Shown: piece after piece, positions 17,048 through 41,767 of the stretch
How the letters are laid out: the number at the start of each line of letters is the position of its first letter
Numbering within the stretch: position 1 is the stretch's first letter
Assembly: GCF_016865525.2 (NCBI RefSeq)
Contig: NZ_CP075169.1
Location: 4,836,337 to 4,900,336, forward strand
DNA: 64,000 nt
Direction of reading: 5' to 3'
From: Sodalis ligni
GTDB lineage: Bacteria; Pseudomonadota; Gammaproteobacteria; Enterobacterales; Enterobacteriaceae
Program-made: the position numbers and the translations under genes
The notes under the pieces: generated by a model
What the model saw: only the letters and a program-made list of their open reading frames with translations
Told to the model about the DNA's origin: nothing
Database searches by the model: none

Positions 17048-17215
17048 CAGACGACTAACAAATATGCACGGAGTCAACAAGGCGGGACAGGATGCTGGAA
17101 GAGTAAACCGTCCACGCCATGGAATGGATGGCGTGGATCGAGCCTACAGGGACGGATTCACGGCGTGTTTACGATCTAGCATCCTGTCCCGACCGGGCAC
17201 TATGCCAGTAGGCTC
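17048..17215 (+). repeat. palindromic element, copy A (168 bp), 3' of eno
   Basis: Begins CAGACGACTAACAAA and ends GTAGGCTC; homologous along its length to the copies at 34971 and 41579. The outer stem is perfect: GGGACAGGATGCT at 17084-17096 pairs with AGCATCCTGTCCC at 17178-17190. Inside lie GTAAAC/GTTTAC and a CACGCCAT/ATGGCGTG stem. Its right end abuts the eno terminator hairpin. Unlike copies C and D, no duplicate of that hairpin is found on the left. Confidence 0.85.
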
Positions 17216-17216
17216 A

Positions 17217-17240
17217 AAAGCCCCACCACAATGGGGCTTT
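17217..17240 (-). terminator. rho-independent terminator of eno
   Basis: On the minus strand AAAGCCCC pairs with GGGGCTTT around an 8-base loop, followed by a short T tract. It lies about 20 bp after the eno stop, where a terminator is expected. Confidence 0.75.
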
Positions 17241-33360: not shown

Positions 33361-34935
33361 ATGTCATCAATTATCACCCACAATGTCGACAACGCATTGT
33401 ATATTAAAGTTCACGATACCGATAATGTTGCTATTATCGTGAACAATAACGGTCTGCCGGCCGGTACTAAATTTCCTGATGGGCTGGAGCTTGTCGAGCA
33501 TATTCCCCAAGGACATAAAGTCGCATTACATGATATTGCCAAAGGCGGTAATATTGTTCGTTATGGAGAAATCATCGGCTATGCCGTACGGGATATTAAA
33601 CAGGGCAGCTGGATAGACGAATCCCTGGTGGTATTGCCCGAGGCGCCGCCCCTTGAATCACTGCCCCTGGCCACCAAAGTACCGGCCCCGTTGCCGCCGT
33701 TGGAAGGGTATACCTTTGAAGGCTATCGCAACCCGGACGGCAGCGTCGGCACCAAAAATCTGCTCGGCATTACCACCAGCGTCCATTGTGTGGCGGGAGT
33801 GGTGGAGGTCGTGGTCAAGCTTATTGAACGGGATCTGCTGCCGAAATATCCCAATGTGGACGGCGTGGTGGGATTGAACCATTTGTACGGCTGCGGAGTG
33901 GCCATCAATGCCCCCGCCGCGGTGGTGCCGATTCGCACCATTCACAATATCGCGCTGAATCCCAATTTCGGCGGCGAAATCATGATAGTCGGCCTGGGCT
34001 GCGAAAAGCTGCAGCCGGAACGCCTGTTGACCGGCACCGAGGATGAAATTCCCATCGCGGTTGAGAGCGCGGGCGTCAGTATCACGCGGTTGCAGGATGA
34101 AAAGCACGTCGGCTTTAAATCCATGGTGGATGATATTTTGCAGGTGGCGGAAGAGCATCTGAAACGCCTGAATGCCCGCAAGCGCGAAACCTGCCCCGCG
34201 TCCGATCTGGTGATCGGCATGCAGTGCGGCGGCAGCGACGCGTTTTCCGGCGTTACCGCCAATCCGGCGGTGGGTTTCGCCTCGGATCTGCTGGTACGCT
34301 GCGGCGCTACGGTGATGTTTTCCGAAGTCACTGAGGTACGCGATGCCATCCATCTGCTGACCCCGCGCGCCGCCGATGAGCATGTAGGCCGCCGACTGCT
34401 TGAGGAAATGGCCTGGTACGACAATTATCTGAGCAACGGCCAAACCGACCGCAGCGCCAACCCCTCCCCAGGCAACAAAAGAGGCGGACTGGCAAACGTG
34501 GTGGAAAAGGCCCTGGGCTCCATCGCCAAATCCGGTACCAGCGCCATTGTGGAAGTGCTGTCCCCCGGCCAGCGCCCCACCAAACGCGGGCTGATATTCG
34601 CCGCCACCCCGGCCAGCGATTTTATCTGCGGCACGCAGCAGCTGGCGTCGGGCATTACCGTCCAGGTATTCACCACCGGCCGCGGCACCCCTTATGGCCT
34701 GGCGGCGATACCGGTAATTAAAATGGCCACCCGCAATGCCCTGGCGGATCGCTGGTATGATTTGATGGATATCAACGCCGGTACCATCGCCACCGGCGAA
34801 GCCACCATCGAAGACGTGGGCTGGCAGCTGTTCAACTTTATTCTGGACATCGCCAGCGGCCGCAAAAAAACCTGGTCCGATCAATGGGGCATCCATAACG
34901 CCCTGTCGGTATTCAACCCGGCGCCGGTGACCTGA
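33361..34935 (+). CDS. garD: galactarate dehydratase GarD
   Basis: Dehydrates meso-galactarate to 5-keto-4-deoxy-D-glucarate. The 524-residue protein (E. coli 523) has an N-terminal SAF-like domain (about 1-110), then the altronate/galactarate dehydratase core with [30 protein letters not shown] and [17 protein letters not shown]. The conserved cysteines and histidines expected to hold the iron are present. It is divergent from garPLRK and convergent with gudD, with the palindromic element C in its 3' region. Confidence 0.95.
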
Positions 34936-34950
34936 TAAACCATTAAACAG

Positions 34951-34970
34951 AGGCCGGCATTACCCGGCCT
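34951..34970. terminator. left copy of duplicated terminator hairpin (element C)
   Basis: AGGCCGGCATTACCCGGCCT, 15 bp after the garD stop. It is an exact copy of the hairpin at 35134 but lacks a T tract on the plus side, so it should not terminate garD transcripts. Confidence 0.8.
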
Positions 34971-35133
34971 CAGACTGCTGACAAACGCACTCGGAGTCAA
35001 TAAGGCGGGACAGGCTGCCAGAAGAGTAAACCGTCCGCGCCATGGATGGCGCGGATCGAGCCTACAAGGATGTATTCACGGCGTGTTTACGATCTGGCAG
35101 CCTGTTCCGACCGGGCACTTTGTCAATAAGCTC
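34971..35133 (+). repeat. palindromic element, copy C (163 bp), inside a split garD/gudD terminator
   Basis: Begins CAGACTGCTGACAAA and ends TTTGTCAATAAGCTC, the same termini and exact 163-bp length as copy D. Outer stem: GGGACAGGCTGCCAGA (35007-35022) pairs with TCTGGCAGCCTGTTCC (35093-35108) with one mismatch. Inner stems: GTAAAC/GTTTAC and CCGCGCCAT/ATGGCGCGG. Terminal inverted repeat TGACAAA/TTTGTCA. It is flanked by identical 20-bp hairpins. An internal short frame (MDGADRAYKDVF...) is shared by copies A, C and D but looks incidental to the palindrome. Confidence 0.9.
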
Positions 35134-35162
35134 AGGCCGGCATTACCCGGCCTTTTTGTTTT
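35134..35162 (+). terminator. right copy of duplicated hairpin; functional garD terminator
   Basis: AGGCCGGCATTACCCGGCCT at 35134-35153 is followed by TTTTTGTTTTT. This is a standard rho-independent terminator on the plus strand for garD. The copy at 34951 lacks the T tract, so garD mRNA should read through element C to end here. Confidence 0.85.
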
Positions 35163-35177
35163 TATGCCAATGCCGGA

Positions 35178-36503
35178 CTACCGCACCAGCGCCGGGCGTT
35201 TATTATCAAATGTCCAGTTGGGAATCAGGTATTGCATGGCGGCGGCATCGTCCCGCGCCCCCAGGCCGTGTTGTTGATAAAGCGCGTTGCCTTCCATTAC
35301 CCGAGCCATATCCAGCTCAATGCCCAGTCCTGGTTTTTCCGGTACCTTGACCTTGCCGCCGATAATTTGCAGCGGCTCTTTGGTGAGGCGCTGATCGCCT
35401 TCCTGCCAGATCCAATGGGTATCGATAGCGGTAATCTTACCCGGCGCGGCGGCGGCGACATGGGTGAACATCGCCAGGGAAATATCAAAATGGTTGTTGG
35501 AGTGCGAACCCCAGGTCAGTCCCCATTCGTGACAAAGCTGGGCAACGCTCACCGAACCCTGCATGGTCCAGAAATGGGGATCCGCCAGGGGAATATCCAC
35601 CGACTGCAGGGCCAAAGTATGGCCCATTTGCCGCCAATCGGTGGCAATCATATTGGTGGCGGTAGGCAAGCCGGTGGCGCGACGGAACTCCGCCATGACC
35701 TCTCGCCCGGAAAAGCCCTGCTCGGCGCCGCAAGGGTCCTCGGCATAGGCCAGCACGCCGCGCAGCTGTTTACCAAGAGTAATCGCTTCCGCCAGCGACC
35801 AGGCGCCATTGGGATCCAGGGTGATACGCGCCTTGGGAAAATGTTCCGCCAGGGCGGTTACCGCCTCGGCTTCTTCGCTGCCTGCCAGCACCCCGCCCTT
35901 AAGCTTGAAATCATTGAAACCATATTTTTCATAGGCGGCTTGTGCCAGGCGCACAATAGCCGCCGGGGTCATGGCGGTTTCGTGACGCAGGCGATACCAG
36001 CCACAGGGATCGTCCGGCTGGCTGCGATAGGCTAAATCCGTCCGCTTGCGGTCACCGATATAAAACAGATATCCCAGCATCTCCACGGCGTCCCGCTGCT
36101 GCCCCTCCCCCAGCAGCGCCGCCACCGGCACGCCGAGAAATTGCCCCAGCAAATCGAGCATCGCCGCTTCGATGCCGGTCACCACGTGGATCGTGGTACG
36201 CAAATCAAAGGTCTGTAATCCGCGACCGGCGATATCGCGATCCGCGTACCGCAACCGCACGGCCCGCATGACGTTTTTATATTCCCCCAGGGACTTGCCC
36301 ACCACCAGGCCGGCGGATTCCTCAAGGGTAAGACGTATCTTTTCGCCGCCGGGAATTTCCCCCACGCCGGTATGCCCGGCATTATCGGTAAGGATGACGA
36401 TATTGCGGGTAAAAAAGGGGCCATGGGCCCCGCTCAGATTCAATAACATACTGTCATGGCCGGCAACCGGAATGACTTTCATGGTGGTAATAGCCGGAGT
36501 CAT
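35178..36503 (-). CDS. gudD: glucarate dehydratase GudD
   Basis: Dehydrates D-glucarate (and L-idarate) to 5-keto-4-deoxy-D-glucarate. From ATG 36501-36503, after a strong AGGAGAGGAAGG ribosome site, the protein is 441 residues (E. coli 446). Enolase-superfamily catalytic residues are all present: Lys200-X-Lys202 (KLKGG), metal ligands Asp230 (DPNGAW), Glu255 (EDPCGAEQ) and Asn284 (TNMIATDW), and the general base His334 with Asp308 (SHSNNHFD). [12 protein letters not shown] marks it as GudD, not GudX. It is transcribed apart from gudP-gudX and converges on garD. Confidence 0.96.
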
Positions 36504-37014
36504 AATCCTTCCTCTCCTGATATTGATATTTAGGCGCAAGTGATAACAAGTTGGAATCGACTATAACGACACTTGTCGGCCCAGGCACTATGCAAATGCC
36601 TAAGCCACGAACGTATATCTCGTCAAAATCCAACATCCTGTTCCCCTGTGACGAAGGGATCCACCCTTCAGCCAACAGAGTGAAACCGGCGGCTTTTTGC
36701 CCTGAATAAACGCTACCGGCTTTTTTTCGCTGAATATTTACTCTATTTCACCATTGCGAACCTGATCACAAAACGCTTATTCAAGGTGATTGGGATCACA
36801 TGAGGCTGTTCTATCGCCTTAAAGCTTCCCCCTTTGTCAGCAGTCATTCAGTCAAAAGCACAATGTGCGGCGGAGTAACTCAATTTATACTCACTCCCTG
36901 ATGACCCGTTATTGATAGCCGCATCCATTTACCTACTCTACGAACGTTAAGCTCGAACAATCGCCGGATGCAGACAGATAAAAATTACCCTATACCCCAC
37001 AGGGGAGAGGAATC
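36504..37014. promoter_or_regulatory. divergent gudD / gudP control region with two CRP-like sites and a palindrome
   Basis: A 511-bp AT-rich gap. Two CRP-like sites are visible: TGCGA-N6-TCACA at 36755-36770 and GGTGA-N6-TCACA at 36785-36800, centres exactly 30 bp (about three helical turns) apart. A perfect palindrome GCACAATGTGC at 36858-36868 is a candidate CdaR operator. An AGGGGAGAGG ribosome site precedes gudP. Factor identities are inferred. Confidence 0.55.
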
Positions 37015-41550: not shown

Positions 41551-41578
41551 AAAAAAAAACAGCGCCCGGAGGCGCTGT
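41551..41578 (-). terminator. left copy of duplicated hairpin; functional degP terminator
   Basis: On the minus strand CAGCGCCTCCGGGCGCTG is followed by nine T, a strong rho-independent terminator. It lies ~190 bp after the degP stop, on the far side of element D, so degP mRNA should include the element. Confidence 0.85.
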
Positions 41579-41741
41579 CAGACTGCTGACAAATGCACTC
41601 GAAGTCAATAAGGCGGGACAGGCTGCCAGAAGAGTAAACCGTCCGCGCCAGGGATGGCGCGGATCGAGCCTACAAGGATGTATTTACGGCGTGTTTACGA
41701 TCTGGCTGTCTGTCCCGACCGGGTCCTTTGTCAACAAGCTC
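41579..41741 (+). repeat. palindromic element, copy D (163 bp), inside a split degP terminator
   Basis: Starts CAGACTGCTGACAAA and ends TTTGTCAACAAGCTC, the same ends and length as copy C, about 90 percent identical by eye. The left stem arm GGGACAGGCTGCCAGA is kept, the right arm reads TCTGGCTGTCTGTCCC, so two pairs are lost. The CCGCGCC/GGCGCGG inner stem remains. It is flanked by two copies of an 18-bp terminator hairpin (41560-41577 and 41742-41759) differing at one base. Confidence 0.9.
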
Positions 41742-41767
41742 CAGCGCCCTGAGGCGCTGTTTTTTTA
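41742..41767 (+). terminator. right copy of duplicated hairpin with T tract on the plus strand
   Basis: CAGCGCCCTGAGGCGCTG followed by eight T, ending just inside the degP stop codon region. It would stop plus-strand transcripts only. Together with the left copy it represents a bidirectional terminator split by element D. Confidence 0.75.

What the first reader, a model, noticed from the sequence alone, without database searches (positions are those of the whole stretch)
34951..35162. 163-bp palindromic element lodged inside a terminator, with the whole hairpin duplicated on both sides
Seen: the 20-bp hairpin AGGCCGGCATTACCCGGCCT occurs identically at 34951-34970 and 35134-35153, with an exact 163-bp palindromic element between. 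The T tract is only on the right copy. This looks like a mobile element that recognises intrinsic terminators and duplicates the hairpin as its target site. As a result garD mRNA must carry the structured element in its 3' UTR. I know of no described element family with this target choice, but cannot search.
Basis: partly seen in the sequence, partly recalled or inferred. Interest (0 to 1): 0.82.

Follow-up and report, generated by a model that had tools for sequence, protein, structure and literature searches.

The report
Jumping DNA that doubles terminator hairpins
A short DNA parasite of a known family (YPAL) sits in the stop signal of a sugar-acid gene and has copied the whole stop-signal hairpin to both of its sides; a gene-carrying jumping element with a matching end does the same on plasmids, which points to a candidate for the unknown enzyme that moves this family.

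Summary
In detail: a 163-bp element (34971-35133) lies between two identical 20-bp hairpins after garD, the downstream copy keeping the T tract. The element belongs to a described family, YPAL/RU-2: the printed Y. pestis sequence has nearly the same ends and Rfam RF02770 matches at 88 bits. So "no described family" is wrong, but the target and duplication reading holds. Three congeners have one hairpin plus T tract after garD. Of 45 end-defined copies in this genome, 29 have a repeat of the flanks that mismatched pairs reach in 7 of 1980; in 24 of 26 testable copies its length equals the hairpin within 1 bp.

New here: the genome holds a defective IS1182-family insertion sequence with an end identical to the YPAL left end over 15 bp, also between duplicated hairpins. 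Full-length relatives on plasmids give three filled/empty pairs (500 of 500 bp) in which a terminator-type hairpin of 18, 20 or 28 bp is duplicated whole. Most likely YPAL is a MITE moved by this IS1182 group, which joins at the feet of a stem-loop; described IS1272 (same family) deletes or replaces the hairpin. Movement of YPAL by this enzyme is inferred, not shown.

The parts
34951..34970 (.). Left copy of the duplicated hairpin (target-site duplication); terminator-like on the minus strand
34971..35133 (+). YPAL/RU-2 element, 163 bp
34971..34985 (+). Left end CAGACTGCTGACAAA, 15 of 15 identical to the end of the IS1182-group insertion sequence
35119..35133 (+). Right end TTTGTCAATAAGCTC; the family consensus right end, read inward, matches the IS end at 11 of 15
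35006..35022 (+). Left arm of the long outer stem; several pairs covary across copies
35093..35109 (+). Right arm of the long outer stem
35032..35058 (+). Inner hairpin (positions converted from the alignment columns)
35060..35082 (+). Second inner hairpin (positions converted from the alignment columns)
35028..35133 (-). Match to Rfam RF02770 Ysr224, model 1-107 of 107, 88 bits
35134..35153 (.). Right copy of the duplicated hairpin; followed by the T tract, terminator-like on the + strand
33361..34935 (+). garD-like ORF (name as in the finding; not tested by a family search)
17048..17215 (+). Second YPAL copy in the window, 168 bp; hairpin only on the right (17217-17240), no duplication detected; lies 3' of an ORF that looks like eno (recognised by eye)
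41579..41741 (+). Third YPAL copy in the window; 19-bp hairpin copies on both sides (41560-41578 and 41742-41760, 18 of 19 identical); lies 3' of an ORF that looks like degQ (recognised by eye)

Best explanation
The element is a YPAL/RU-2 MITE, moved in trans by an IS1182-family DDE transposase whose insertion sequence has the same end (CAGACTGCTGACAAA). The transposase chooses its target by shape: a short, mostly G+C-rich stem-loop whose outermost duplicated pair is usually A-T. It joins the two element ends to the two strands at opposite feet of the stem-loop; gap repair then copies the whole hairpin, so a complete hairpin flanks the element on each side. Where the target is an intrinsic terminator, the T tract stays beyond the far hairpin, so termination is regained after the element and the upstream mRNA (here garD) gains a long 3' stem-loop. 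Shown by sequence: YPAL identity, duplication equal to hairpin, one hairpin at empty sites, shared end, exact whole-hairpin duplication by full-length IS copies. Inferred: that this transposase group moves YPAL, the joining at the stem feet, and read-through of the first hairpin.
For: YPAL identity. 45 copies: repeat score 8 or more in 29 against 7 of 1980 mismatched pairs; duplication length within 1 bp of the hairpin in 24 of 26. One hairpin in congeners at garD (3 congeners), at the L003 site (3) and the L005 site (2). IS1182-type IS in the same genome with the same end and a hairpin repeat identical at 21 of 22. A hairpin of score 6 or more starts 0-2 bp from 27 of 32 IS-type ends against 9 of 585 controls. 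Three filled/empty plasmid pairs at 500 of 500 bp with exact 18-, 20- and 28-bp hairpin duplications. First base of the duplication is A in 29 of 45 YPAL copies and in 36 of 44 IS ends read outward. YPAL left end equals the IS end at 15 of 15. 9 of 21 YPAL genomes also match the IS against 25 of 274 others, Fisher p 1.4e-4.
Against: The IS copy in this genome is defective, and no IS1182 transposase over the family cut-off was found in it or in five congeners. YPAL's right end matches the IS end at only 11 of 15, and I saw no similarity beyond the ends. The co-occurrence falls to 5 of 21 against 19 of 274 (p 0.019) with a strict cut-off and is not corrected for kinship. Not every copy shows the duplication: 16 of 45 YPAL copies score under 8; IS copies L156, L157 and L160 have unlike hairpins on their two sides, and two of eight plasmid sites (L273, L274) do not show a plain direct duplication. 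Congener G236 has two unlike hairpins after garD. No same-species empty site for YPAL itself could be had.
Confidence: 0.75

Rival explanations
1. YPAL goes into hairpins and duplicates them, but is moved by another transposase; the IS1182 group shares end and target by convergence or as a distant relative.
For: Right end 11 of 15; no IS1182 transposase over the cut-off in this genome or five congeners, although G297 has about as many YPAL copies.
Against: The left end is 15 of 15; the 15-mer scan of this genome brought up YPAL ends, remnants and this IS among the hits that I fetched and read (hits with two mismatches were mostly not fetched); the same unusual stem-loop duplication and A...T edges.
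Confidence: 0.2
2. The two hairpins were there before (a tandem hairpin) and the element went between them, or the hairpin is part of the element.
For: Congener G236 has two unlike hairpins after garD; G297 is filled, so the pre-insertion state of the closest relative is not seen there.
Against: Hairpin sequences differ from copy to copy; G141, G295 and G296 have one hairpin; three plasmid empty sites carry the hairpin once, with the rest 500 of 500 identical.
Confidence: 0.03
3. The repeat is kept mainly for a use as RNA (an sRNA such as Ysr224, or an mRNA stabiliser); mobility is secondary.
For: 9 of 38 pairs have changes on both sides that keep the pair; an Rfam sRNA family covers it; the three window copies lie 3' of ORFs.
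Against: Pairing can also be kept by copying from one source; minis of 58-71 bp without the long stem exist, and two of five have a flank repeat above the 99% point of the null (scores 16 and 6.5); the near-identical group L001-L005 (98.8-100%) at scattered places points to recent spread.
Confidence: 0.15

Closest known systems
YPAL / RU-2 (Yersinia palindromic sequences)
   Same: Nearly the same ends and core, about 165 bp, no TA termini, long stem-loop, duplication over dyad symmetry, multicopy
   Different: Another genus; here the whole hairpin is shown to set the duplication length, and a candidate transposase group is named
IS1182-family insertion sequences with CAGACTGCTGACAAA ends
   Same: Left end 15 of 15; hairpin target; whole-hairpin duplication
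   Different: About 1.6 kb and carries a transposase; YPAL has no such gene, and its right end matches at 11 of 15
IS1272 / TnSha1 (IS1182 family, staphylococci)
   Same: IS1182 family; targets hairpins, several of them confirmed terminators (PMC5678879, PMC4923244; passages)
   Different: Removes or replaces the hairpin and makes no duplication; whole stem-loop duplication appears there only as a hypothetical branch of a model (legend of Fig 13)
ERIC / RU-1
   Same: Intergenic enterobacterial MITE
   Different: 127 bp, TA termini (table in PMC2229807)
Rfam RF02770 Ysr224
   Same: Full-length match on the minus strand
   Different: Filed as an sRNA; the match suggests that it models part of a YPAL repeat (inference)

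Membership tests
YPAL/RU-2 | Length near 167-168 bp and the published end sequences | tested here: met
   163 bp; CAGACTGCTGACAAA and CACTTTGTCAATAAGCTC against the printed Y. pestis ...CAGACTGCTGACAAA and CACTTTGTCAATAACCTCA
YPAL/RU-2 | Target duplication of 3-26 bp that spans or adjoins dyad symmetry | tested here: met
   20 bp at the focal copy; 16-26 bp in the 26 clear copies; definition from PMC2229807
YPAL/RU-2 | Multicopy, internal inverted repeats, no TA at termini | tested here: met
   41 BLAST matches; arms 35006-35022 and 35093-35109; ends C...C
YPAL/RU-2 | Cotranscription with the upstream gene and effect on mRNA level | not testable with these tools
   No RNA data for this organism
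MITE of the IS1182 CAGACTG group | Shares terminal repeats with the autonomous element | tested here: inconclusive
   Left 15 of 15, right 11 of 15
MITE of the IS1182 CAGACTG group | Shares target and type of duplication | tested here: met
   Whole hairpin in both
MITE of the IS1182 CAGACTG group | Intact autonomous partner in the same genome | tested here: not met
   Only a defective copy; 0 of 6 genus genomes over the family cut-off. A partner may have been lost
MITE of the IS1182 CAGACTG group | Movement in trans by its transposase | not testable with these tools
   Needs a bench assay
IS1272-type hairpin replacement | Target hairpin deleted or replaced, no duplication | tested here: not met
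   Hairpin present twice in filled sites
ERIC/RU-1 | 127-bp length and TA termini | tested here: not met
   Length and termini differ (definition); no ERIC model was searched

The most novel reading that the evidence does not exclude
A distinct group of IS1182-family insertion sequences (ends CAGACTGCTGACAAA) recognises DNA stem-loops by shape and duplicates the entire stem-loop, so it can enter terminators without abolishing them; YPAL, described in 2006 without a known transposase, is its MITE. Whole-hairpin duplication is then another outcome of hairpin-targeted transposition beside the deletion or replacement known for IS1272.
Probability: 0.72. Interest if true: 0.7.

Novelty: new variant of a known kind. 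Interest (0 to 1): 0.6.

Why it matters
The repeat itself is a known family, but how it moves is open: PMC2229807 (passage) says that such repeats are thought to move by transposases without experimental support yet. The shared end and the hairpin duplication name a testable enzyme group with full-length copies, some on conjugative plasmids. A transposase that joins at the feet of a stem-loop and duplicates it whole would be guided by structure, with a duplication length set by the target and not by a fixed stagger. It would also explain how a parasite can live in terminators with little harm: the terminator is rebuilt on the far side.

Tried and rejected
ERIC was considered and dropped on length and termini. 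A single-strand (IS200/IS605 or RAYT type) mechanism was dropped because, as I recall, those make no target duplication, and the partner found is a DDE element. The sroD hit (17.7 bits, gathering score 50) I take as chance. No YPAL was found in the plasmid or phage collections, so the YPAL empty sites are congeners, with 81-90% flank identity at the sites that show a plain single hairpin. In G296 the downstream neighbour of garD matched on another contig, so that site is not fully syntenic. At the L004 site congener G297 has one hairpin, but a stretch like an element end (CAGACTGCCGA) follows it, so I do not count it as a clean empty site. The IS site in this genome had only a short partial match in one congener. 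At the L003 site G295 had no match, and G297's stretch ends soon after with a different hairpin; at the L005 site G295, G236 and G297 show no matching hairpin at the junction, G236 having one further on.

In one search the Pearson correlation of duplication and hairpin length is only 0.15, because of one outlier (L003) for which the script chose another hairpin; Spearman is 0.83. L020 and L021 have near-identical flanks and may be one event; they probably supply part of the null tail. Six of the 41 BLAST copies were left out of the 45 because one or both ends could not be placed; ten size variants were added. Of 31 loci from the two IS searches, 24 gave the 32 IS-type ends, picked by eye from the list; seven loci had no usable end. 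YPAL copies of other genera were read by eye and not scored; in 12 of the 37 loci listed there the two ends were not both found.

Literature: nine searches. None of their listings showed a paper that ties YPAL to IS1182 or reports whole-hairpin duplication by an IS1182 element; I saw listings and passages only, the library is open-licence, and De Gregorio 2006 (not held) and Siguier 2015 were not read.

Full report
What is there. The window holds a garD-like ORF (33361-34935), a 20-bp hairpin at 34951-34970, a 163-bp element at 34971-35133, the same hairpin at 35134-35153, and then a T tract. A terminator scan of 34880-35220 finds two sites: + strand at the right hairpin and minus strand at the left one (0.3 expected from shuffles). 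So garD, and the convergent ORF at 35178-36539, would each meet their terminator only beyond the element (inference).

What the element is. Table 1b of PMC2759123 (passages) prints a 168-nt Y. pestis RU-2 that begins ttCAGACTGCTGACAAA and ends GGGCACTTTGTCAATAACCTCA; the element here begins CAGACTGCTGACAAA and ends GGGCACTTTGTCAATAAGCTC, with a similar core. Rfam RF02770 (Ysr224) matches 35028-35133 on the minus strand over its full length, 88 bits against a gathering score of 70. PMC2229807 (passages) says that YPAL/RU-2 makes target duplications of 3 to 26 bp, that targets span or adjoin dyad symmetry, and that empty and filled sites were compared in Yersinia. That many YPAL targets overlap terminators is my recall of De Gregorio 2006, which is not held. 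PMC2847712 (one passage) lists 2 to 144 copies per Yersinia genome and 3 in E. coli.

Copies and their flanks. The genome (6.44 Mb, one contig, unnamed) has 41 BLAST matches. Both ends could be placed in 35 of these; ten size variants found through end-pattern scans (five of 239-242 bp, five of 58-71 bp) make 45. The flank-repeat score reaches 8 in 29 of 45, against 7 of 1980 mismatched left-right pairs. A hairpin of score 7 or more lies in the first 45 bp after the right end in 30 of 45 and in the last 45 bp before the left end in 21 of 45, against 61 of 1350 control stretches from the same loci. In the 26 copies with a repeat score of at least 10 and a hairpin score of at least 6, the repeat length equals the hairpin extent (its offset from the junction counted on both sides) within 1 bp in 24; repeat lengths are 16-26 bp. 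The first base of the right copy is A in 29 of 45 and the last base of the left copy is T in 33 of 45 (background 0.21 and 0.22). A T run at the right hairpin is seen in 10, an A run at the left one in 13, either in 21 of 45; for the T run alone the control is 18 of 405.

Empty sites for YPAL. After garD, congeners G141, G295 and G296 have one hairpin followed by at least six T; G236 has a different stretch with two unlike hairpins; G297 is filled. The named relatives Biostraticola tofi (L032) and two MAGs (L031, L033) also show one hairpin there (the MAG stretches look the same as G295 and G296). The G297 copy is 93.9% identical to the focal copy and equally to three others; in a tree it groups with other copies (support 0.78) while the focal copy groups with L002-L005 (0.95), to which it is 98.8-100% identical. 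So either both species were hit independently at this hairpin, or one site was converted; I cannot tell. At the L003 site G141, G236 and G296 show one hairpin, and at the L005 site G141 and G296 do. In other genera, YPAL matches were found in 21 of 295 family genomes, own and congeners included, and some copies have clearly repeated hairpins, for example L215, L235 and L236 (by eye).

The candidate enzyme. The scan with the YPAL left end hit a pair of inverted ends 1395 bp apart at G000:C1:839659-841053. Between them two ORFs match the start (3-158) and the end (315-487) of the NCBIfam IS1182 transposase model, neither over the cut-off, so the copy is defective. Its flanks are AGGAAGCCCAGAAGGGCTTCCT and the same with one change at the last base. 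A search with this IS matched 34 of 295 family genomes, own included. Of the six further loci in which I placed both ends, three (L153, L154, L159) have exact hairpin duplications of 24, 21 and 17 bp, and three (L156, L157, L160) have hairpins on both sides that differ from each other. L153 and L154 carry ORFs of 475 and 491 aa; in L159 the frame is split. At 32 recognisable ends from 24 of 31 loci a hairpin of score 6 or more begins 0-2 bp from the junction in 27, against 9 of 585 control stretches.

Exact filled/empty pairs. The plasmid collection has 1044 records with a match to L153's IS, 15 of them over at least 80% of it; the rows listed are mostly annotated as IS1182 family transposase. 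Three translated copies score 487-497 bits against a cut-off of 270. Of eight distinct plasmid sites that I read, six have exact hairpin duplications of 16, 18, 19, 20, 20 and 28 bp; L273 lies between inverted flanks and L274 between unlike ones. For three sites (18, 20 and 28 bp) I fetched an empty record: the joined flanks match it at 500 of 500 bases each, and at 499 of 500 for a second empty record of the third site; each empty stretch holds the duplicated sequence once. The left flanks of these sites occur in 949, 812 and 55 plasmid records, of which I read one, one and two as empty sites. At the 18- and 20-bp sites the pairing could run on into A and T tracts, yet the duplication stops after one A-T pair, so the joint lies at the foot of the G+C stem and not at the end of all possible pairing (read).

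Why I join the two. The YPAL left end equals the IS end at 15 of 15 bases and the consensus right end at 11 of 15. Target, variable duplication and A...T edges are shared. Among the end hits that I fetched and read I saw no other autonomous element. Against this stand the absence of an IS1182 transposase over the cut-off in this genome and five congeners and a co-occurrence that is only moderate: 9 of 21 YPAL genomes against 25 of 274 others (p 1.4e-4), or 5 of 21 against 19 of 274 with a strict cut-off (p 0.019), not corrected for kinship and with at most two candidates scored per genome.

Mechanism. PMC5678879 (passages) reports that IS1272, cited there as IS1182 family, replaces stem-loops, and in its model (legend of Fig 13) notes that joining at the 5' feet would duplicate the whole stem-loop. 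PMC4923244 (passages) finds TnSha1/IS1272 in hairpins with partial deletion, five of seven sites confirmed as terminators. Both cite Siguier 2015 (not read) for palindromic targets of some IS1182 members. Not all members behave so: ISPse1 is listed with a 4-bp duplication (PMC3281130). The group here fits the duplicating branch: recognition of a stem-loop (supported by statistics), joining at opposite feet (inferred from exact duplications), gap repair (standard for DDE elements, recall), regained terminator (anatomy), longer 3' UTR of garD mRNA (inferred).

RNA side. 32 copies share a predicted branched stem of 38 pairs, 9 of them with at least one sequence changed on both sides and still paired. 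Five variants of 58-71 bp lack the long stem; two of them have a flank repeat above the 99% point of the null, so the stem seems not to be needed for insertion (weak evidence).

Verdict. ORF names other than the transposases are by eye or from the finding.

Noticed in passing
G000:C1:5075982-5076335 (L028, L029): Two YPAL copies in tandem with three copies of related hairpins, as if a duplicated hairpin had been hit a second time.
   Followed up: partly
L131-L135 (G000, five sites): Five YPAL variants of 239-242 bp with about 78 extra bp in the inner hairpin that contain further small hairpins.
   Followed up: partly
L179:1490-1541 (G257): A 52-bp, nearly palindromic element made of two IS-type ends, next to hairpins; a minimal derivative of the IS.
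   Followed up: no
L111 (G000) and L193 (G297): A lone right end in this genome; a congener has what looks like the complete element between two hairpins at the same place, so this is probably a deletion remnant.
   Followed up: no
L257 (G297): After the single hairpin at the counterpart of the L004 site stands CAGACTGCCGA, perhaps the remnant of an older insertion in the other orientation.
   Followed up: no
L273 (Salmonella plasmid CP053580.1): The IS1182 copy lies between flanks that are inverted repeats of each other, a sign of a rearrangement between copies.
   Followed up: no
window:35028-35133 and Rfam RF02770: The sRNA family Ysr224 appears to model part of a YPAL repeat, so genome hits to it may be repeats and not dedicated sRNA genes.
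   Followed up: partly
window:17048-17215: A YPAL copy directly 3' of an eno-like ORF, with a hairpin on one side only.
   Followed up: partly
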